DNA of 64,000 nucleotides from Sandaracinus amylolyticus. Lineage in GTDB: Bacteria > Myxococcota_A > Polyangia > Polyangiales > Sandaracinaceae. Below, piece by piece: positions 18,967 to 63,909 of the stretch. The notes beneath the pieces were generated by a model. The model searched no databases, was not told where the DNA came from, and was given only the letters and a program-made list of their open reading frames with translations. Where the stretch lies: assembly GCF_000737325.1 (NCBI RefSeq), contig NZ_CP011125.1:4464001-4528000 (forward strand), given 5' to 3'. Each line of letters begins with the position of its first letter. Position 1 is the first letter of the stretch. A program made the translations under genes and the position numbers.

Positions 18967-20391
18967 ATGGCCAAGGCGAAGGCGTGGAAGTTGGGGAGCC
19001 CAGGGGAGCCCTCGTTCCCCGGCGACTTCGAGATCGTGAAGCGCGCCGTCCTGCAGCTCACCGACGTCGTCAACAACAACAACAAGTACTACGGCATCGA
19101 GCTGCACCGCGCGGGCAACGCGTACCGCGTGTTCACGCACTACGGGCGCACCGACGACCTCGAGACGAACCCGAACGCAGGCGCGAAGGAGAGCCGCTAC
19201 TTCGACGATCTCGCCTCGGCCGACGCGTGTTACGCGCAGATCTATCGCGAGAAGACCGCCGCCTCGAAGGGCTACAAAGAGGTGTCGCTCGCCTCGAGCA
19301 AGATCGGCTCGCACAAGGCGCGCGGCACGAGCAGCGGGCAGATCGACGAGCGCACGCTCGAGAAGATCGAGGGCGAGAAGGAGAAGCGCGCCGCGATCCC
19401 CAAGTCGACGCTGCCGCCCGGCGTGCAGTCGATGCTGCAGTACGTCTACGACGAGGCGACGAACGCGCTGACGTCGACGGTCGCCGCGAAGATCACCGCG
19501 CACGGCATCGAGACGCCGCTCGGCGTGCTGACCATCGGACAGATCGAGCGCGGCGAGGCGATCCTGAACGACGCGTTCAAGGTCTTCGAGCAGCGCGGCA
19601 CGAAGGCGCAGGCGGAGCTCTCGCGTCTGTCGAGCGACTTCTACTCCGCGATCCCGCACCGCCTCGGCCGCACGCGCGCGGAGATCCAGGCCGCGGTGCT
19701 CGACTCGCTCGAGGAGTTCGCGGCGAAGCAGGAGACGCTGCAGCTCATGCGCGACATGCTCCAGGTCAACGGCGAGGGCGGCAGCGTCCTCTACGACTCG
19801 GAGATCGACGCGAAGTACAAGGCGCTCAACTGCGAGATCGGCTGGATCGAGCCGGGCACCGGGCCGTGGAAGGAGATCGCAGACTACGTCGAGCGCTCGC
19901 AGATCAAGAGCAAGAGCGTGAAGGTGCGCAACGTGATGACGCTGAAGCGCGCCGGCGAGCACGACGCGTTCACCGACGGCATCGGCAACCACCGCATGCT
20001 CTTCCACGGATCGCGCATCAAGAACTGGGTCGGCATCCTCTCGCGCGGGATCCTGCTGCCGAAGATCGTCGTCAGCATGGGCGTGAAGCGCACCGACGCA
20101 GGCTGGCTCGGCAACGGCATCTACTTCGGCGACGCGGCGTGCACGAGCGCGTTCTACACGTCGCCCGGCAAGAAGGGCACGCGCCTCATGAGCGTCGCGC
20201 GCGTCGCGCTCGGCAAGACCGCCGAGTACACGAAGATCACCTACGGGCTGAACGGCCCGCCCGAGGGCTTCGACTCGTGCCACGGCGTGCGCAACAAGCC
20301 GGGCACGTCGTCGCAGTTCGCCGACGACGAGTACGTCGTCTATCGCACGCAACAGCAGCGGCTCGAGTACCTCGTCGAGTTCACGGCGTGA
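18967..20391 (+). CDS. WGR-domain poly(ADP-ribose) polymerase (PARP)
   Basis: The 474 residues form a bacterial PARP. A WGR domain spans about 27-108 (NNNNKYYGIELHR, with HYGRTD in place of the WGR core), a helical regulatory domain about 150-290, and the ADP-ribosyltransferase domain about 300-474. The H-Y-E triad of true PARPs is visible: His347 in LFHGSR, Tyr386 in GNGIYFGD and Glu455 in DDEYVVYR, so chain elongation is possible. In eukaryotic PARPs, WGR binds damaged DNA and relieves the helical domain. It heads a one-strand cluster running to 28877 and is back-to-back with a DNA ligase. GAGGGAGGG precedes the ATG. Confidence 0.95.
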   Translation: MAKAKAWKLGSPGEPSFPGDFEIVKRAVLQLTDVVNNNNKYYGIELHRAGNAYRVFTHYGRTDDLETNPNAGAKESRYFDDLASADACYAQIYREKTAASKGYKEVSLASSKIGSHKARGTSSGQIDERTLEKIEGEKEKRAAIPKSTLPPGVQSMLQYVYDEATNALTSTVAAKITAHGIETPLGVLTIGQIERGEAILNDAFKVFEQRGTKAQAELSRLSSDFYSAIPHRLGRTRAEIQAAVLDSLEEFAAKQETLQLMRDMLQVNGEGGSVLYDSEIDAKYKALNCEIGWIEPGTGPWKEIADYVERSQIKSKSVKVRNVMTLKRAGEHDAFTDGIGNHRMLFHGSRIKNWVGILSRGILLPKIVVSMGVKRTDAGWLGNGIYFGDAACTSAFYTSPGKKGTRLMSVARVALGKTAEYTKITYGLNGPPEGFDSCHGVRNKPGTSSQFADDEYVVYRTQQQRLEYLVEFTA

Positions 20392-20405: not shown

Positions 20406-21146
20406 ATGCTCGTCAAAGTGGTCCTCTGCGACGTGAACCCGAAGGTCATCCAGGCGTGGCGCGCGACCTTCGAGGAGAACCCCGAGGTCGAGATCGTGCA
20501 CGGCTCGATGCTCGACATGTCGACCAGCGCATGGGTCTCGCCGACGAACTCGGCGGGCCGCATGGACGGCGGGCTCGATCTCGTGATCAAGAACTACCTC
20601 GGCGTCGGCATCGAGAAGACGCTGCAGCGCACCATCAAGGATCGCTACGCGGGACGCATGCCGGTCGGCCACGCAGCGTGCACGCCGACCGAGCGCGTGC
20701 AGCCGCGCTTCCTGATCTCGACGCCGACGATGGTCTCGTCGTCGGAGGACATCAGCGCGACGATGAACGTCGCGCTCGCGTGCGCGGCCGCGTTCCAGGC
20801 GGTGCACATCCAGAACACGGTCGAGCCGGGCACGATCCGATCGGTCGCGCTGCCGGGCCTCGGTGCGAACACGGGGAGGGTGCCCGCGGAGATCTGCGCG
20901 GACCTGATGTGGACCGCGTACGACCTCTTCCGCGAGCACGCGTTCACCGACTTCGCGGCGGTGCGCCAGGCGCTCGAGAGCATCCTCGGCGACCTCGGAC
21001 CGACGTCGACGCAGTACAAGCAGAAGGCCGCGCCGGGCCTCTCGCAGATGGGCATCACCCCGTCGAAGCCGACGATCGGCGGTGCGCTCGAGGACTTCGA
21101 CGACTCGGAGTTCGAGGACGACGAAGACTTCAGCGACGACGAATGA
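20406..21146 (+). CDS. macro-domain protein (ADP-ribose reader or eraser)
   Basis: The 246 residues contain a macro fold: EIVHGSMLDMS, then VSPTNSAGRMDGGLD (the phosphate-binding Asn/Gly loop, residues 44-58), and the glycine loop ALPGLGANTGRVP. Macro domains bind ADP-ribose, and many remove it from proteins. A helical region (about 165-225) and a strongly acidic tail follow (last 18 residues nearly all Asp, Glu, Phe, Ser), which suggests contact with a basic partner. It begins 15 bases after the PARP gene with GAGAGGAGAAG upstream, so the two are surely one operon. Confidence 0.92.
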   Translation: MLVKVVLCDVNPKVIQAWRATFEENPEVEIVHGSMLDMSTSAWVSPTNSAGRMDGGLDLVIKNYLGVGIEKTLQRTIKDRYAGRMPVGHAACTPTERVQPRFLISTPTMVSSSEDISATMNVALACAAAFQAVHIQNTVEPGTIRSVALPGLGANTGRVPAEICADLMWTAYDLFREHAFTDFAAVRQALESILGDLGPTSTQYKQKAAPGLSQMGITPSKPTIGGALEDFDDSEFEDDEDFSDDE

Positions 21147-21173: not shown

Positions 21174-23705
21174 GTGATCCCGACGAGACGATTCCGGCGT
21201 CCGACCGGGGACGATCGTTACGCGGTCGTCTCCGTCGAGCCGTCTTCGGCGCAGCCGGGCGCTGGCTCACTCCAGGGACAGTGGCTGATCCGCGTCGCGC
21301 GCGGCATCGCGCCGGGGTCGCTCTCGAGCGGGACGGTGTACGGGCCGTATCCGACGAACCTCGCGGACGCGCGCGCCGAGGACGTGGTCCGCGCGCTGCT
21401 CGGCGAGGGGTTCACGCCCTCGGTGCACGAGGAGCTGATCGAGGCGCTCTCGTCGTCGGATCCCGCGCGTCGTGCGCGCGCGGCGATCGCGCTCGGTTGG
21501 CGTCGCGAGCGCGCGGTCGTGCCGGCGCTGCTCGCGGCGGCCGCGACGAAAGGGCCCGAGCTGCCTTCGATCGTCGAGGCGCTCGGGCGCATCGGGGATC
21601 CCGCGGCGATCCCCATCACGCGCGAGCTCGCGAGCAAGAAGCTGCTCTCGCGGCGACGCGCGGGCGTGGAGGCGCTGCGGCTGCTGGGCGACGCCGAGGG
21701 GCTCGCGGAAGCGCGCGCCGCGGGACAGAAGCGCTTGCCGCCCAGCATCGCGCAGGCGATCGGCGCGCTCGACGAGAACGACCTGCGCAAGAGCAACGTG
21801 GCGCCGCTGCTCGAGGTGATCGACGCGCTCGAGAAGGCGCGCGTCGGGATCGTGGCGGATCAGCTCTACGAGGCGGGCACGCCTGCGCTGGTCGCGACCG
21901 CGCGCCGGATGCTGCGCGCGTCCGACGTGTCGGCGCCGCACGTGTGGCGCTACGCGAAGAGCGTGCTGAAGCGCGCGATGCTGCGCGAGGACGCGGCGAC
22001 GTTCGCGCTGATCGCGCACGCGATCGAGCAGCGCGCACGGAGCACCAAGGGAAAGAGCGCGAGCCTCAAGTCGGGGCTCGACGGAGAGACGCGCTCGACG
22101 CGCGTCTTCGGTCGCAAGACCCAGCGCTGGGCGATGCGCGCGTGCTGGCGCTACCTGCGACGGATCGCGAAGTGGAGGCCCGAGCGCTACGCCGAGATCG
22201 CGGCCGAGGTGCTCTGCGCGTACCGGCCCGAGGATCGCGCGCCCGAGCAGGGGCTCTTCGGGCCGCTCGCGCATTCGTATGAGCTCCAACGAATTCTGTT
22301 CGCGCGCAGCACGCGCGTGGTGCTCGACGACCGCACGCTGAAGACGCGGTTCGCGAGCGCGGCCGCGAAGATGGCCGTCGCGAGCGTGCGCGAAGAGGCG
22401 TTCCCGGAGCTCTGGGACGCGCGCCCGGACGCGTACCTGCGAGCGCTCGTCGGGGGACGGCTGCGCGAGGTGCAGGACTTCGCGCTCGCAGGCGTCGCGC
22501 GTCATCCCGGCCTCGCCCAGCGCCTGCAGAACGGCGACATCGCGTCGCTGCTCGCGTCGGAGCACGAGGGTGTGGTCGCGGTCGCGCTCGCGGAGCTCGA
22601 GCGACGCTTCGACGCGACGAAGCCCGATCTCGCGCTGCTCTCGCGCTTGCTCGACTCGGAGAGCGCGTCGGTGCGCGCGCGGGGCGCCGCGCTGCTCGAT
22701 CGTTCGCGGCTCGCGTGGTCCGGCGATCCCGAGGGCGTGCTGCGGCTGCTCGATCGCGAGCGCCCGGTCGCGCGCGCCGAGATCGCGAGCATCGTCGCGA
22801 GCGCGCTGCGCGACGCCGCGCGTGATGCGCGGATGGCGATCGCGAAGCGGCTCGTCGATCGGCTGCGTGAGGGCGGAGACGACGATCGGCTCGCGTCGAT
22901 CGCGGAGCTGCTCGCGAGCGCGCTGCGAGACGAGGTCGCGAGCGTGCTCTCGTCGACCGAGCTCATCGCGTGGATCGATCGCGGCGGGAACGCGGCGAAG
23001 CGTGTCGCGGGGCGGCTGCTCGCGGGTCGACCCGAGGCGCTGGCGCTGATCGGGCTGCCGCGCCTCACCGCGCTCGCCGACTCGGAGGTCGCGACGGTGC
23101 GCGAGGCCGCCGTCGCGCTGCTCGATGCGGCCGAGGGCGAGCTGCGCGCCGATCCGACGCCGCTCTACACGCTCGCGGAGTCGCGCTGGGACGACGTGCG
23201 GCGTCCCGCGCTCGCGCGGCTGCGCGCGCTGATCACGGTCGAGCAGCACGGGCTCGATGCGGTGATCGCGCTCTGCGACTCCAACCACGCGGAGGTGCAG
23301 GCGCTGGGGCGCGAGCTCGTGCTCGCATCGTTCGATCGCCTCGACGCGGACGCCGTGCTCTTCCGGCTGATCGAGCACCCGCAGCGCGCGATGCGTGCCT
23401 TCGCGATGGAGCTCGCGACGCAGCACCTGCGCCCTGGGTACGTGCCGCTCGCGCGATGCGAGGCGTTCTTCCGCACGGTGCTGCTCGAAGTGCGCGCGGA
23501 TGCGGCGACGAAGCGCCGCGCGATCGACTTCCTCGTCACGCGCGGGCAGCTCGACGCGCAGCAGGGCGCGCTCGCGGCATCGCTGCTCGATCGCGTGCTG
23601 CGCACGCGCACCGTGCGCGACTTCGAGCGCGTGATCGTCGGGCTCGCCGCGATCCAGACACGCTTCCCCGAGGTGCGCAGCGCGCTCTCGACGGAGGGCG
23701 CATGA
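21174..23705 (+). CDS. large HEAT-repeat protein
   Basis: The 843 residues are almost wholly alpha-helical repeats. Clear HEAT units include ALSSSDPARRARAAIALGW and EALGRIGDPAAIPITRELA near 85-150, and further ones from about 435 to 760. The first 75 residues are beta-rich (QGQWLIRVARG, VYGPYPT) and could be a very divergent WGR-like module; this is weak. No catalytic motif is seen, so it is probably a scaffold or nucleic-acid-binding solenoid. GTG start at 21174, 27 bases after the macro gene. Its stop overlaps the next start (ATGA), implying translational coupling. Confidence 0.85.
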   Translation: MIPTRRFRRPTGDDRYAVVSVEPSSAQPGAGSLQGQWLIRVARGIAPGSLSSGTVYGPYPTNLADARAEDVVRALLGEGFTPSVHEELIEALSSSDPARRARAAIALGWRRERAVVPALLAAAATKGPELPSIVEALGRIGDPAAIPITRELASKKLLSRRRAGVEALRLLGDAEGLAEARAAGQKRLPPSIAQAIGALDENDLRKSNVAPLLEVIDALEKARVGIVADQLYEAGTPALVATARRMLRASDVSAPHVWRYAKSVLKRAMLREDAATFALIAHAIEQRARSTKGKSASLKSGLDGETRSTRVFGRKTQRWAMRACWRYLRRIAKWRPERYAEIAAEVLCAYRPEDRAPEQGLFGPLAHSYELQRILFARSTRVVLDDRTLKTRFASAAAKMAVASVREEAFPELWDARPDAYLRALVGGRLREVQDFALAGVARHPGLAQRLQNGDIASLLASEHEGVVAVALAELERRFDATKPDLALLSRLLDSESASVRARGAALLDRSRLAWSGDPEGVLRLLDRERPVARAEIASIVASALRDAARDARMAIAKRLVDRLREGGDDDRLASIAELLASALRDEVASVLSSTELIAWIDRGGNAAKRVAGRLLAGRPEALALIGLPRLTALADSEVATVREAAVALLDAAEGELRADPTPLYTLAESRWDDVRRPALARLRALITVEQHGLDAVIALCDSNHAEVQALGRELVLASFDRLDADAVLFRLIEHPQRAMRAFAMELATQHLRPGYVPLARCEAFFRTVLLEVRADAATKRRAIDFLVTRGQLDAQQGALAASLLDRVLRTRTVRDFERVIVGLAAIQTRFPEVRSALSTEGA

Positions 23706-25438
23706 CTGCGACGTCCTTCGCGTACAAGTACGCGGGCCGCAGCGGTGCCGTCGCGAGCGGCGATCGCGCGCGCCTCGCGCTCGCGACGAGCACGCTGCGC
23801 GAGGCGACGTACTTCGCAGGTGAGCTCGATGACGTGCTCCCGCTGCGCGAGGGGCTCGCCGCGCTCTACGACGTCGCGGTCAGCGACTTCCGATATCACC
23901 CGCGCGATCGCACCGCGTTCCGTGCGTGGCTCGCGGAGCAGGACCGCCTGTTCCTCGCGGGGCTCGCCGCGAAGAGCACGCACGCGAAGGCGCGCCTCGG
24001 CGAGATCCAGCTGCGCATCGGCGAGCTCGATCGGGCCCGCGCCGAGCGTCGCGCGTCGTTCGAGAAGGCGCGCCGCGCGTACGTGCAGTGGGCGATCGAG
24101 GACGAGCTCGAGCGCTCACTGGTGCTCGATCCCGTGGTCACCGTGCACCCCGACGAGCTCTCGTTCGAGGCGTTCTCGCGCGATCAGAGCAGCTACGCGC
24201 GGCTCGCGGTGGGGCACGCGGCGTTCTCGCGCATCGACGCGATCGAGCACGGCACGACGAACGTCGACTTCTCGTCGCGCCTGCACGATCACTTCGATCG
24301 GATGCGCAGCTATCGCGCGACGCGGTTCGAGATCGCGCCGGGTGGCTTCGAGGCCGAGACGATCGCGGCGCTGCCCGAGACCGCGCGGTCGGTGCACGAG
24401 AAGAAGATCACGATGCCCGAGGGCTGGCTCGCGGGCTTCCTCCAGGTGCACGGCCTGATGTCGATGGGGCTCGAGCGCGTCGAGCTCGCGCCCGTCGACG
24501 TCTACAACGTGATCCGCGTGATCCGTGCTCGACGCGCGCAGGCGTCACCGCGCTCGCTGCGCTGGCAGCTCACGCCCGGCGAGCGCACGAAGATCCTGAT
24601 CGAGCCCTTCGACGTGCTCGTGACCGGCTCGCCGATCAGCAGGTTCCACGGCGCGAAGGAGCGCTCGATCCGCACGTGGGGCCGCGATCGACTGCGCGTG
24701 CTCGAGCGCGTGCTGCCGCTCGCGGAGCGCGTGCAGGTATTCCTCGCGGGCTCCGGCCTGCCGAGCATCTGGGTGTGTGATCTCGGTGGACGCGTGACGT
24801 TCACGCTCGCGCTGTCGGGCTGGACCGACAACGACTGGGCCGGCGGTCAGGCGAAGTTCGATCTGCTCACGCGTCGCCTGCCGACGAACGCCGACGAGCT
24901 GACGCGTGTCTACGGCGCGCTGCGCGATGCCCGTCGCGCGACCGACGCGGAGATCGCCGCACGTTGTGATCTCGGCGTCGAGAAGGCGCGCAGCGCGCTC
25001 TCGATCCTCGCGCAGGCGGGACGCGCGATGTACGACGTCGTGAGCGGCCTGCATCGCCATCGCGATCTCTTGCTGGTGCCGTTCTCGGCGAGCGCGGCGA
25101 TCGCGGAGGCGAAGGTCGCGGAGATCGAGTCGAGCCCGAAGGCGAAGACCGCGAAGGAGATGATCGACCACGGCGGCGTACGGATCATCGCGCGCCGTCC
25201 GACGTCGATGGGGTACAAGCTCTCGGGCAGCGCGCGCGGAGAGAGCGGTCCGCCGGTGCGCCCGCTGCTCGCGGTGGATCACGAAGGACAGATCCTCGAG
25301 GCCAGCTGCACGTGCGTGTTCGCGGAGAAGCACGGGCTGACCAAGGGACCCTGCGAGCACGTGCTCGCGCTGCGGCTCGCGCACATGGCGAAGCTCGAGG
25401 AGGAGGATCAGGCGAAGAAGAAAGGATCGTCGTCGTGA
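23702..25438 (+). CDS. SWIM zinc-finger protein
   Basis: The 578 residues end in a SWIM zinc finger: Cys536-x-Cys538 (SCTCVF), Cys551-x-His553 (PCEHVL). SWIM fingers bind DNA or proteins. The N-terminal half has a helical, charged stretch (about 95-145), and the middle (about 270-460) is mixed alpha/beta with no enzyme motif I recognise. The start overlaps the HEAT gene stop by four bases, so the two are probably made together in fixed ratio. The stop lies 13 bases before the retron RNA. Confidence 0.88.
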   Translation: MTATSFAYKYAGRSGAVASGDRARLALATSTLREATYFAGELDDVLPLREGLAALYDVAVSDFRYHPRDRTAFRAWLAEQDRLFLAGLAAKSTHAKARLGEIQLRIGELDRARAERRASFEKARRAYVQWAIEDELERSLVLDPVVTVHPDELSFEAFSRDQSSYARLAVGHAAFSRIDAIEHGTTNVDFSSRLHDHFDRMRSYRATRFEIAPGGFEAETIAALPETARSVHEKKITMPEGWLAGFLQVHGLMSMGLERVELAPVDVYNVIRVIRARRAQASPRSLRWQLTPGERTKILIEPFDVLVTGSPISRFHGAKERSIRTWGRDRLRVLERVLPLAERVQVFLAGSGLPSIWVCDLGGRVTFTLALSGWTDNDWAGGQAKFDLLTRRLPTNADELTRVYGALRDARRATDAEIAARCDLGVEKARSALSILAQAGRAMYDVVSGLHRHRDLLLVPFSASAAIAEAKVAEIESSPKAKTAKEMIDHGGVRIIARRPTSMGYKLSGSARGESGPPVRPLLAVDHEGQILEASCTCVFAEKHGLTKGPCEHVLALRLAHMAKLEEEDQAKKKGSSS

Positions 25439-25450
25439 CGCGCGCAGTGC

Positions 25451-25709
25451 GTCGAGGACGAGGGGTCGGGGAGCCCAGCGCGCTCATCACGCGCAACGGC
25501 CTAGCCATCGGTGCGGTGCAACGCCGCGCAGGCTCACGTGCTCTCCATTCGTCACGGGCCCGGTCGGCACCCGGGTCCCACGGCCCTGCCCGCCCGCAGC
25601 TGGTTGGGGACCTCCGGTCCCCGCGGGCATCGGCAGGGCCGCGGGACCCTATGGTGGACAGGTCCCGTCCCAGGGCTCTTCGTAGGCGCCCCGGCCCCTC
25701 GTCCTCGAC
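25451..25709 (+). ncRNA. retron msr/msd RNA (template and primer for msDNA)
   Basis: The gap between the SWIM and RT genes has every part of a retron RNA. The ends pair: a1 at 25451-25471 with a2 at 25689-25709, 21 consecutive pairs including one G-U. Directly after a1 comes AGC (25472-25474), whose G is the expected 2'-OH branch point. The msr part has hairpins at 25478-25494 (GCGCG/CGCGC) and 25513-25527. The msd part is one long stem: 25573-25590 with 25632-25649 (17 of 18 paired), continued inside by GCCCGC/GCGGGC and GGGGACC/GGTCCCC around a 3-base tip near 25614. The exact msDNA ends cannot be read from sequence alone. Confidence 0.88.
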
Positions 25710-25730
25710 GGATTGCAGGAACGCGCTCGC

Positions 25731-27137
25731 ATGAGCGACGAGAAGGACCCGCAGAAGGCCGCGCTCGTCAAAGCGGTCCTCGCGTCGCTCGACGACGCGA
25801 CCGCGCTCTCGCGCATGAAGACGCTCGGCTTCTGGCCCGTGCACGAGCCGGTGCCGGGCGATCCGCCGGGCGAGATCGTCGAGCGCGCGGAGCTCGACGC
25901 CGAGCTCGCGACGCTGGTGAAGATCGCGAGCGACGGCGAGAAGCCCGAGAAGGCGCTGCAGCGCGAGCGCATCCGGCGCTGGAAGGAGAGCCGCGAGCGT
26001 CGCAAGGCGAAGAAGGCCGAGCGCATCGCGGAGGCGAAGCAGCGCGCCGACGCATGGCGCGCGCAGCGCGCCGAGCGCCTCGTCTACGCGGGCCTCGGCG
26101 TCAGCGCGGGGCTGCACGACGTCGAGAGCGACGTCGCGACGCTCGAGGCGTGCGGACTTCCGATCTGGCGCGACGCGCGCGACGTCGCGAGCGCGCTCGG
26201 CATCTCGATCGCGAAGCTGCGCTGGCTGACGTTCCACCGTCGCGGCGCGACGCTCGTGCACTACCACCGCTACGGAATCCCCAAGAAGACCGGCGGAATT
26301 CGCGCGATCTCGGCGCCCAAGCCCGCGCTCGCCGAGGCACAGCAGAACGTGCAATCGTTGGTGCTCCAACGAATCGCGCCGAGCGACGAGGCGCACGGCT
26401 TCGTGCGCGAGCGCTCGGTCGTGAGCAACGCGCGGCCGCACGTCGGGCGCGCGGTCGTGGTGAACCTCGACTTGCGCGACTTCTTTCCGACGATCTCGTT
26501 CCGCCGCGTGAAGGGCCTGTTCGCGAAGCTCGGCTACTCCGAGCAGGTCGCGACCGTGCTCGCGCTCCTGTGCACCGAGCCGCCGCGCGTGCCCGCCGAG
26601 CTCGACGGGCAGCGCTACCACGTCGCGCTCGGCGCGCGCGTGCTGCCCCAGGGCGCGTGCACCAGCCCCGCGATCACGAACCTGATCTGCCGCCGCCTCG
26701 ATGCGCGGTTGCGCGGCATCGCGCGCGCGCTGGGGTTCACGTACACGCGCTACGCCGACGACCTCACGTTCTCGGGCGACGATCCCACGAAGCTCGCGTC
26801 GCTGTTCGGCATGGTGCGCAAGGTGATCGCGAGCGAGGGGTTCGCCGAGCACGAGGGCAAGACGCGCGTCATGCGCCGCGGCGCGCGCCAGGAAGTGACG
26901 GGCGTCGTGGTGAACCGCGCAGTGCGTCTGCCGCGCGACGAGAAGCGCGCGCTCCGCGCGTTGCTGTACAACTGCGCTCGCTTCGGGATGGAGAGCCAGA
27001 ACCGCGACGGTCGTCCGAGCTTCGCGTCGTACCTTCGTGGGCGCGTCGCGTGGGCGGTGATGGTCGAGCCCGCGCTCGGGCCGCGGCTCTTCCCGGCGCT
27101 CGAGCGCGCGCTCGAAGGTCGGCGCAGCGATCTCTGA
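25731..27137 (+). CDS. retron reverse transcriptase
   Basis: The 468 residues carry all retron RT marks: motif A NLDLRDFF (about 245-252), PQGACTSPAITN, the catalytic YADD (341-344), the retron-specific NAxxH (NARPH, 234-238) and VTG (389-391). It copies the msd part of the RNA at 25451-25709 into msDNA branched from the msr guanosine. The first 120 residues are an Arg/Lys/Glu-rich helical extension, a feature I associate with myxobacterial retron RTs. It starts 21 bases after a2 and ends 12 bases before the ADP-ribosylglycohydrolase fusion gene. Confidence 0.95.
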   Translation: MSDEKDPQKAALVKAVLASLDDATALSRMKTLGFWPVHEPVPGDPPGEIVERAELDAELATLVKIASDGEKPEKALQRERIRRWKESRERRKAKKAERIAEAKQRADAWRAQRAERLVYAGLGVSAGLHDVESDVATLEACGLPIWRDARDVASALGISIAKLRWLTFHRRGATLVHYHRYGIPKKTGGIRAISAPKPALAEAQQNVQSLVLQRIAPSDEAHGFVRERSVVSNARPHVGRAVVVNLDLRDFFPTISFRRVKGLFAKLGYSEQVATVLALLCTEPPRVPAELDGQRYHVALGARVLPQGACTSPAITNLICRRLDARLRGIARALGFTYTRYADDLTFSGDDPTKLASLFGMVRKVIASEGFAEHEGKTRVMRRGARQEVTGVVVNRAVRLPRDEKRALRALLYNCARFGMESQNRDGRPSFASYLRGRVAWAVMVEPALGPRLFPALERALEGRRSDL

Positions 27138-27149
27138 TCGGGGGAATCG

Positions 27150-28877
27150 ATGGGAGAGCGAAGAGGCAGCGGGGACGGGACGATGCAGCTCGATCTGCTC
27201 GGCGCCGAGGTCGCGCGTCCGACGAAGTCGAGCCCGGGCACGGTCGTGGCCGATGCGCCCGCGAAGGTCACGTCGAGCACGCATCCGATGCGCGTCACGT
27301 GGGTCGAGCCGCGCATCGGCGTCGCGCACGCGCCCGGCGTCGTCGAGATCGCGGAGACCGGCATCGAGTGGTCGCGTGATCTCGCGAGCGATCTCGACGC
27401 GCTGCGCGCCGAGGGCGCCGACGTGCTCGTCGACCTGACGACCGACGAGGAGCGCGCGCGCGGCGGGTACGGCGCGATCGAGGATCTCGCGGACGAGCGC
27501 GAGCTCGTCGTGATCCGACTCCCGATCGTGCCCGAGGGCGCGCCCTGCGAAGACGCGCACGAGGTGCTCGAGCGCATCGAGTCGCACGTCTCCGAGGACG
27601 CGAAGGTCGTGCTCGTCTCGCGCGAAGGGATGGGGCGCGCGGGGACCATCGCAGTCGCGCTGCAGGTGCGCAGCGGGCGCGCGCTCGACGATGCGCTGCG
27701 CGCGACACGCGAGCTGCGTGGGCGCAAGGTGGCGAGCAGCGACGCGCAGCGCGAGTGGCTCGAGCAGATCGCGCAGCACGTCGCGTCGGCGAGTGCCATC
27801 GACGACGGCGAAGAGGGCGATCTCTGGAGCGCGCGCGAGCTCGACGACGACGACCTCGGTCCCGAGCTCCCCGAAGCGGCGATCCGCGAGACGATCCCGC
27901 CGGAGATCCGTCCCGCCACGCCGCGTGCGCGCGCTCTCTCTCCGCGTGCCTCCGCGGTCGGCGGCGCGGTGCTCGGCGCCGCGATCGGCGATGCGATGGG
28001 GCACCCCACCGAGTTCATGTCGCTCGAGGCGATCCGCCGGAAGTGGCCGCCTCACGGCGTGACCGCGTTCGAGCTCTACTGGGAGCGCGGCGGCAAGCGC
28101 TTCGCGCCGTACACCGACGACACGCAGATGGCGGAAGCGGTGCTGCGCTCGCTCTTGTGGTCGCGCCGCGAGGGCGCGGATCTCGACGCGACGATGCAGC
28201 ACATGGCGCGTGCGTTCGTGGAGTGGGCGGAGCGCCCGCAGGGCGGACATCGCGCGCCGGGCAACGCGTGCCTCAGCGGGTCGCGCGCGCTCGCGCGCGG
28301 TGAGCACTGGTCGCGCGCCGGTGGACCGACCGCGGGCGGATGCGGATCGGTGATGCGCGCGTATCCGTTCGGCCTGCTCTACGCCCACGATCTCTCGCGC
28401 TGTGAGGAGTGGTCGGTCGCGCACAGCAAGCTCACGCATCGCGATCCGATCGCGCTCGCGGCCAGCGCGGCGATGGCGATCGGCGTGGCGCGCGTGCTGC
28501 GCGGCGATCCGACGCGCGTCGTGCTCAGCGAGATGATCGCCGCCGCTGCGCGGTACAGCGCGCGCACTGCGGTGATGATGGCCGAGGCGCTCGACGACGC
28601 GGATGGCGGCGTCGCGCCCGAGACGACGCTCGATCGACTGCGCGGCTGGGCAGCGCACGAGGCGATCGCGGCCGCGGTCTACCTCTTCGCGCGCTCGCCC
28701 GACGATCCCGAGCGCGCGATCCTCGAAGGCGCGAACAGCCCCGGCGACAGCGACAGCCTCGCGACGCTCTCGGGCGCGCTCGCCGGTGCGCGCGCCGGGC
28801 TCGGTGCGCTGCCCGACGCGTGGGTGCGCGACGTCGAGCGCAGCGACGATCTGCTCGCGCTCGCCCTCGAGATCTGA
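27150..28877 (+). CDS. phosphatase-fold/ADP-ribosylglycohydrolase fusion
   Basis: The 575 residues join two domains. The N-terminal part (about 55-215) resembles a dual-specificity or CDKN3-like phosphatase, but the signature loop reads VSREGMGRAGT: the catalytic Cys is Ser157 and the preceding His is Val, so phosphatase activity is unlikely. The C-terminal part (about 268-575) is an ADP-ribosylglycohydrolase (ARH/DraG type) with both metal sites: TDDTQM, and GDSDSLATLSGA near the end. It should remove ADP-ribose from proteins or nucleic acid, opposing the PARP at 18967. An internal ATG at 27183 is an alternative start. It is the last gene of the cluster. Confidence 0.92.
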   Translation: MGERRGSGDGTMQLDLLGAEVARPTKSSPGTVVADAPAKVTSSTHPMRVTWVEPRIGVAHAPGVVEIAETGIEWSRDLASDLDALRAEGADVLVDLTTDEERARGGYGAIEDLADERELVVIRLPIVPEGAPCEDAHEVLERIESHVSEDAKVVLVSREGMGRAGTIAVALQVRSGRALDDALRATRELRGRKVASSDAQREWLEQIAQHVASASAIDDGEEGDLWSARELDDDDLGPELPEAAIRETIPPEIRPATPRARALSPRASAVGGAVLGAAIGDAMGHPTEFMSLEAIRRKWPPHGVTAFELYWERGGKRFAPYTDDTQMAEAVLRSLLWSRREGADLDATMQHMARAFVEWAERPQGGHRAPGNACLSGSRALARGEHWSRAGGPTAGGCGSVMRAYPFGLLYAHDLSRCEEWSVAHSKLTHRDPIALAASAAMAIGVARVLRGDPTRVVLSEMIAAAARYSARTAVMMAEALDDADGGVAPETTLDRLRGWAAHEAIAAAVYLFARSPDDPERAILEGANSPGDSDSLATLSGALAGARAGLGALPDAWVRDVERSDDLLALALEI

Positions 28878-63684: not shown

Positions 63685-63757
63685 CGTCCCCAGAGGGATT
63701 CGAACCCTCGTAGCCACCGTGAAAGGGTGGAGTCCTGGGCCTCTAGACGATGGGGAC
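63685..63757 (-). tRNA. tRNA-Glu (anticodon TTC)
   Basis: On the minus strand, GTCCCCA and TGGGGAC form the acceptor stem with discriminator G. The anticodon stem CCACC/GGTGG encloses CTTTCAC (anticodon TTC). The T-arm GAGGGTTCGAATCCCTC is perfect. 73 bases, no CCA encoded. Confidence 0.97.
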
Positions 63758-63836
63758 GGTGGTACTTCTGTTCGGACGGGCTCTGACGCGCTCTGGCTCG
63801 CGCGCCCGGCTCCCTATGACGAGGGCGCGGGGTGTT

Positions 63837-63909
63837 TGGGCCGTGCAGGGCTCGAACCTGCCACCGTCGGGTTAAAAGCCCGCTGCTCTGCCGGCTGAGC
63901 TAACGGCCC
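63837..63909 (-). tRNA. tRNA-Lys (anticodon TTT)
   Basis: On the minus strand, GGGCCGT pairs with ACGGCCC. The D-arm is GCTCAGCCGGCAGAGC, the anticodon loop CTTTTAA (TTT), and the T-arm GCAGGTTCGAGCCCTGC. Discriminator A; CCA not encoded. It is 79 bases upstream of tRNA-Glu in transcription order, so the two may be one transcript. Confidence 0.97.

What the first reader, a model, noticed from the sequence alone, without database searches (positions are those of the whole stretch)
25451..25709. Retron msr/msd RNA recognised from base-pairing alone
The spacer before the RT has 21-base closing arms a1/a2, an AGC branch-point context right after a1, two short msr hairpins and one long msd stem with a 3-base tip. 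All parts sit where established retrons have them, and no published retron sequence was needed to see it. It predicts a new msDNA of roughly 80-150 nucleotides.
Basis: seen in the sequence. Interest (0 to 1): 0.8.

Follow-up and report, generated by a model that had tools for sequence, protein, structure and literature searches.

The report
Retron operon carrying a PARP pair
The stretch is a genuine type XIII retron RNA next to its reverse transcriptase, and in a small clade of myxobacteria this retron is almost always found together with a PARP enzyme and a macrodomain protein, which suggests an undescribed retron variant that uses ADP-ribosylation.

Summary
Confirmed and extended. Window 25450-25710 is a retron ncRNA directly upstream of an RT (25731-27137) whose best model is PADLOC RT_XIII (E 1.6e-160). 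The closing arms a1/a2 are real: 22 bp, score 71.6 against a shuffled maximum of 38.6. In 11 sequences the 60-pair fold covaries strongly: 114 cells changed on both sides, against 39.5 in shuffles and at most 25 when slid.

One detail is probably wrong. The CAGC after a1 (25476-25479) lies in an insertion found only in this genus. The conserved priming site is CCTA|GC, branch G 25504, beside a covarying 4-bp helix (25500-25503/25683-25686). Predicted cDNA is about 129 nt.

The main new result is the operon. PARP (triad intact), macrodomain, HEAT, SWIM, ncRNA and RT occur in that order in 9 genomes. In 183 genomes of the order, PARP orthologues occur in 14; the close RT clade occurs in 13 of those and in no others, in three cases with PARP and macrodomain genes elsewhere. 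Canonical type XIII HEAT proteins carry a WGR domain; this clade's do not, and PARP supplies one. msDNA production and function are untested.

The parts
18967..20391 (+). [quoted passage not shown] H347-Y386-E455 triad
   Evidence: Pfam PARP 3.8e-29, PARP_reg 4e-15, WGR 6.2e-10; nearest solved relative PARP4, E 2.5e-49; triad conserved in 9 of 9
20406..21146 (+). macrodomain protein, about 246 aa
   Evidence: Pfam Macro 1.8e-11; conserved next to PARP
21174..23705 (+). HEAT-repeat protein of type XIII retrons, without a recognisable WGR domain
   Evidence: PADLOC WGR_XIII 3.6e-101 and HEAT-ARM_XIII 1.2e-68; no Pfam WGR
23702..25438 (+). SWIM zinc-finger protein of type XIII retrons; start overlaps the HEAT stop by 4 nt
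   Evidence: PADLOC SWIM_XIII 1.1e-160
25450..25471 (+). arm a1
   Evidence: mostly gapped in relatives other than G353; a different insertion in G485
25500..25505 (+). CCTA|GC: priming site, predicted branch G 25504
   Evidence: G and C invariant in 11; CCTA pairs with TAGG 25683-25686 with compensatory changes
25511..25529 (+). conserved msr hairpin GTGCGGTG-CAA-CGCCGCGC
   Evidence: 100% of cells paired in 11 and in 23 sequences
25554..25668 (+). msd stem-loop; base 25554-25565/25657-25668, inner stems 25578-25589/25633-25644 and 25607-25612/25616-25621, tip TCC 25613-25615
   Evidence: 88-98% of cells paired, many double changes; column mapping
25554..25682 (-). predicted reverse-transcribed DNA, about 129 nt, 5' end at about 25682
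   Evidence: inferred from the CCTA/TAGG helix and the base of the msd stem; folds as DNA z -5.1
25683..25686 (+). TAGG, 3' partner of the priming helix
25689..25710 (+). arm a2
25731..27137 (+). retron reverse transcriptase, type XIII, with N-terminal extension
   Evidence: PADLOC RT_XIII 1.6e-160; NAxxH, YADD, VTG; clade support 93/99
27150..28877 (+). DSP-type phosphatase fused to ADP-ribosylglycohydrolase
   Evidence: Pfam ADP_ribosyl_GH 3.5e-60, Tc-R-P 1.6e-6; hydrolase also beside the RT in G353, G485 (opposite strand), G465, G442

Best explanation
This is a type XIII retron of a distinct clade whose working set includes a PARP and a macrodomain protein. Shown by sequence: the operon, the RNA fold and its covariation, and the co-occurrence. 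Inferred: the RT primes from the 2'-OH of G25504 and copies 25682 down to about 25554 into a branched msDNA of about 129 nt. The RT-msDNA complex, with the HEAT and SWIM proteins, is held as a phage or DNA-damage sensor. PARP, whose WGR domain stands in for the one that other type XIII HEAT proteins carry, acts as the NAD+-using effector or signal. The macrodomain protein, and in some genomes the hydrolase downstream of the RT, removes or restrains ADP-ribosylation until the complex is disturbed. Retron identity of the RNA: about 0.97. Branch at G25504: about 0.88. PARP-macro working with the retron: about 0.65. PARP as effector and macrodomain as restraint: about 0.4.
For: RT, HEAT/WGR and SWIM all match type XIII models. 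The 60-pair fold covaries in 11 sequences and the core in 23. Each a1 pairs best with its own a2 in 30 of 31, ties counted. The priming helix CCTA/TAGG changes in step. PARP-macro-HEAT-SWIM-ncRNA-RT in the same order in 9 genomes. PARP in exactly 14 of 183 genomes: 12 with the full close RT and G384 with a 63% identical fragment at a contig end; Fisher p 5e-19 (not corrected for relatedness). PARP-macro at a separate locus in G066 and G378, PARP and macro on two other contigs in G206. Pfam WGR in HEAT proteins of 4 of 4 canonical operons, 0 of 6 of this clade; WGR in 4 of 4 PARPs tested. Catalytic triad kept in 9 of 9.
Against: No msDNA, ADP-ribosylation or phage phenotype has been measured. 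Most co-occurrence is physical linkage in related genomes, so independent gains and losses are few; only three genomes are informative in trans. G379 (76% complete) has PARP-macro and no close RT. Most type XIII operons lack PARP, so it is not needed for type XIII in general. The hydrolase is beside the RT in only 5 genomes. Which protein is effector and which is restraint is a guess.
Confidence: 0.6

Rival explanations
1. An ordinary type XIII retron that happens to lie next to a PARP-macro cassette; the two are inherited together but do not work together.
For: The 15 canonical type XIII loci in the set have HEAT and SWIM but no PARP in the DNA read, 4-20 kb each. PARP-macro stands apart from the retron in G066 and G378 and is present in G379 without a close RT.
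Against: The in-trans genomes still carry both; genera g1, g3, g10 and g22 contain species with both and species with neither; the WGR domain is missing from HEAT exactly in the clade with PARP.
Confidence: 0.25
2. The PARP-macro pair is a DNA-repair or NAD+-signalling module for which the msDNA is an activating nucleic acid ligand, without a defence role.
For: WGR domains bind DNA and take part in DNA-dependent activation of PARPs (PMC5966428); the predicted msDNA is a highly structured DNA.
Against: The remaining partners match models from a defence-system library; no repair gene was seen conserved with the operon in the loci read.
Confidence: 0.12
3. The branch point is G25478 (CAGC directly after a1), with GCC/GGC 25473-25475/25685-25687 closing the helix.
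For: This pairing is in the single-sequence MFE fold; CAGC is a known branch context in Mx162 and Sa163 (PMC6868368).
Against: Present only in this genus; the alternative is invariant and covaries across 11 and 23 sequences.
Confidence: 0.1
4. The region is a fortuitous GC-rich hairpin, not a retron RNA.
For: High G+C gives some strong chance helices: random pieces of the window reach a score of 55.4.
Against: Score 71.6; 0 of 100 shuffles reach the observed score in any of 7 loci tested; covariation.
Confidence: 0.02

Closest known systems
Type XIII retrons (PADLOC RT_XIII, HEAT-ARM_XIII, WGR_XIII, SWIM_XIII)
   Same: RT, HEAT protein, SWIM protein, gene order, ncRNA between SWIM and RT, conserved msr hairpin and priming motif
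   Different: PARP and macrodomain genes precede HEAT; the HEAT protein lacks a recognisable WGR domain; TAGC or TGGC at the branch instead of the TTGC of most of the canonical group; an ADP-ribosylhydrolase downstream in some
Myxobacterial retrons Mx162, Sa163 and Mx65
   Same: RT with N-terminal extension, long msd, ncRNA of about 240-260 nt (features from PMC6868368)
DarTG toxin-antitoxin phage defence (PMC9967889, PMC11481870)
   Same: an ADP-ribosyltransferase gene next to a macrodomain gene
   Different: the transferase is a WGR-PARP with H-Y-E triad and no PADLOC match; the macrodomain matches DarG only at E 0.0038; attached to a retron
Bacterial PARPs with WGR-PARP_reg-PARP_cat (PMC5966428)
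   Same: domain order, H-Y-E triad, tyrosine in the first WGR position (YGR)
   Different: member of a retron operon; sequence nearest to PARP4 among solved structures

Membership tests
Retron | retron RT motifs (NAxxH, YADD, VTG) | tested here: met
   NARPH, YADD, VTG in the window RT and nearly all relatives
Retron | a1/a2 inverted repeat closing the ncRNA, conserved as pairing | tested here: met
Retron | conserved priming G context at the inner end of the closing helix | tested here: met
   CCTA|GC with covarying helix, G25504
Retron | msd stem-loop downstream of the msr | tested here: met
Retron | production of branched msDNA | not testable with these tools
   needs RNA-DNA extraction and debranching
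Type XIII retron | RT of type XIII | tested here: met
   RT_XIII is the best of 57 matching models, 1.6e-160
Type XIII retron | SWIM protein | tested here: met
   SWIM_XIII 1.1e-160
Type XIII retron | HEAT/WGR_XIII protein | tested here: met
   WGR_XIII 3.6e-101, best stretch residues 95-591; HEAT-ARM_XIII 1.2e-68
Canonical type XIII architecture | N-terminal WGR domain on the HEAT protein | tested here: not met
   Pfam WGR in 4 of 4 canonical, 0 of 6 in this clade; hence filed as a variant
DarTG | DarT transferase and DarG antitoxin | tested here: not met
   no PADLOC hit for the PARP; DarG E 0.0038 only
Active PARP | H-Y-E catalytic triad | tested here: met
   H347, Y386, E455 in 9 of 9
Active PARP | ADP-ribosyltransferase activity | not testable with these tools
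   needs purified protein

The most novel reading that the evidence does not exclude
A retron subtype in which a PARP and a macrodomain protein form the effector-restraint pair, with the WGR DNA-binding role moved from the HEAT protein to the PARP, so that msDNA or its loss controls ADP-ribosylation during phage infection.
Probability: 0.4. Interest if true: 0.85.

Novelty: new variant of a known kind. Interest (0 to 1): 0.6.

Why it matters
The effector logic of type XIII retrons, to which these HEAT and SWIM proteins belong, is not described in any paper I could read. A clade that carries a PARP, an enzyme with well-known chemistry and inhibitors, together with a macrodomain eraser or reader gives a directly testable handle on it. 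It would also tie bacterial PARPs, whose roles are poorly known, to a retron. The RNA result gives an exact, falsifiable branch point and cDNA length.

Tried and rejected
Rfam at gathering threshold gave only two tRNAs, and a permissive search of the region only a chance miRNA match. A covariance model for genome-wide search was not built: a model of about 250 positions lies beyond the sizes for which calibration times are given. The structure prediction of the macrodomain family did not finish (last asked), so no fold comparison was made. The paper that defined the retron types is not held, and no held paper joins retrons with PARP and macrodomain operons, so prior description cannot be excluded. 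I considered whether the PARP in G250, outside the order, extends the link; its contig is too short to tell. The 23-sequence MAFFT alignment does not align the arms or the long msd stem well, so only its core helices were counted.

Full report
What was checked. The finding proposes a retron msr/msd RNA at 25451-25709. Arms 25450-25471 and 25689-25710 pair over 22 bp with one G-U. The piece folds with z -8.85, and the arm score of 71.6 is far above 100 dinucleotide shuffles (maximum 38.6) and above 295 random pieces of the same GC-rich window (maximum 55.4). The long msd stem with the tip TCC is there.

What it sits in. The window lies in a single-contig genome of 10,327,335 bases; this equals the size I remember for Sandaracinus amylolyticus, which was not verified. 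On the + strand follow PARP 18967-20391, macrodomain 20406-21146, HEAT 21174-23705, SWIM 23702-25438, ncRNA, RT 25731-27137, and a phosphatase-ADP-ribosylglycohydrolase fusion 27150-28877. Apart from the ncRNA, the gaps between the genes are 12-27 nt or a 4-nt overlap, which suggests one transcription unit (inference). RT, HEAT and SWIM proteins match the PADLOC type XIII retron models; the other three are identified by Pfam.

Covariation. Searches of 377 genomes of the phylum and 183 of the order gave relatives. In every relative of the close RT clade the SWIM-RT gap holds a long inverted repeat whose letters differ while pairing is kept. Arms of 31 loci, crossed with each other, hybridise at -44.6 kcal/mol on average with their own partner and -17.4 with others, and the own partner is best, ties counted, in 30 of 31 (the arms were chosen as the best helix in their own locus, which favours this). 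On the alignment of 11 sequences, the window and 10 close relatives, 60 pairs are 92.4% filled, with 114 cells changed on both sides against 39.5 in shuffles and 12-25 when slid. The structure came from these same sequences, which favours it over the slid versions. A core of 21 pairs holds in 23 more diverse sequences.

Branch point. The alignment places an invariant GC at window 25504-25505, preceded by CCTA, which pairs with TAGG at 25683-25686. Across the relatives the four pairs read CG or TA; CG, TA or GC; always TA; AT or GC; with one mismatch in 44 cells. In most of the canonical type XIII group CCTT pairs with AAGG in front of GC. A review gives TAGC as the commonest context and CAGC for Mx162 and Sa163 (PMC6868368), so context alone does not decide; the covariation does. 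By the rule that synthesis starts beside the closing helix and stops near the base of the msd stem, the cDNA would be about 129 nt, from 25682 to 25554 (inference). It folds as DNA with z -5.1.

PARP and macrodomain. Order-wide, PARP orthologues at 63% identity or more occur in 14 of 183 genomes. Twelve hold the close RT and one more, G384, a 63% identical fragment at a contig end; G379, 76% complete, holds none. No genome searched in the order has the close RT without PARP. The close macrodomain orthologue follows the same set of 14. Nine genomes have PARP, macrodomain, HEAT, SWIM, ncRNA and RT in one order; in G066 and G378 the PARP-macro pair is elsewhere, and in G206 PARP and macrodomain are on two other contigs. 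Fisher's test gives 5e-19, but it ignores relatedness. More telling are genera g1, g3, g10 and g22, which contain species with both and species with neither, and the in-trans cases. These remain few events. The RT clade is supported at 93/99.

WGR domain. Canonical type XIII HEAT proteins begin with a WGR domain (4 of 4, Pfam); those of this clade do not (0 of 6), including G066 and G206, where PARP lies elsewhere. The PARPs carry WGR, regulatory and catalytic domains and an intact H-Y-E triad in 9 of 9. The best solved relative of the PARP is PARP4, ahead of PARP1 and PARP2.

How it may work. A retron complex of RT, msDNA, HEAT and SWIM proteins, with PARP as effector or signal and the macrodomain protein, sometimes with the ADP-ribosylhydrolase, as restraint. 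The operon and the co-occurrence are shown; the roles are inferred by analogy with DarTG (PMC9967889) and with retrons whose RT-msDNA complex holds an effector in check (PMC12548924).

Novelty. The retron is a member of a known type. The PARP-macrodomain link was not found in any paper held, but the paper that defined the types is not held, so this is a likely rather than certain new variant.

Noticed in passing
G000:C1:7367446-7368648 (L068): A second RT_XIII-like RT in the same genome, of the sister clade, with a SWIM gene upstream and its own ncRNA about 1 kb upstream of the RT match with 33-nt arms; a1 ends in ACGAGCCCAC, a GAGC context like that reported for Mx65.
   Followed up: partly
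G000:C1:8768948-8769961 (L070): A third, long-branched retron-like RT without a SWIM or HEAT match nearby.
   Followed up: no
L047:2862-4295, and L051 and L058 at similar places upstream of the HEAT gene: Some canonical type XIII operons carry an extra protein with a WGR domain and a beta-propeller just upstream of the HEAT gene.
   Followed up: partly
window 16783 to about 18800, minus strand: A gene that reads like an NAD-dependent DNA ligase (by eye, no family search) lies divergently next to PARP.
   Followed up: no
L003: A contig binned as Candidatus Sigynarchaeota (archaeon) encodes an RT of this family with a SWIM partner; binning error or transfer not examined.
   Followed up: no
G250:C763:3-1043 (L143): A PARP 55% identical to the window's, outside the order, on a 5.7 kb contig; the genome has a canonical type XIII retron elsewhere.
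   Followed up: partly
window 63685-63909, minus strand: Two tRNA genes.
   Followed up: no
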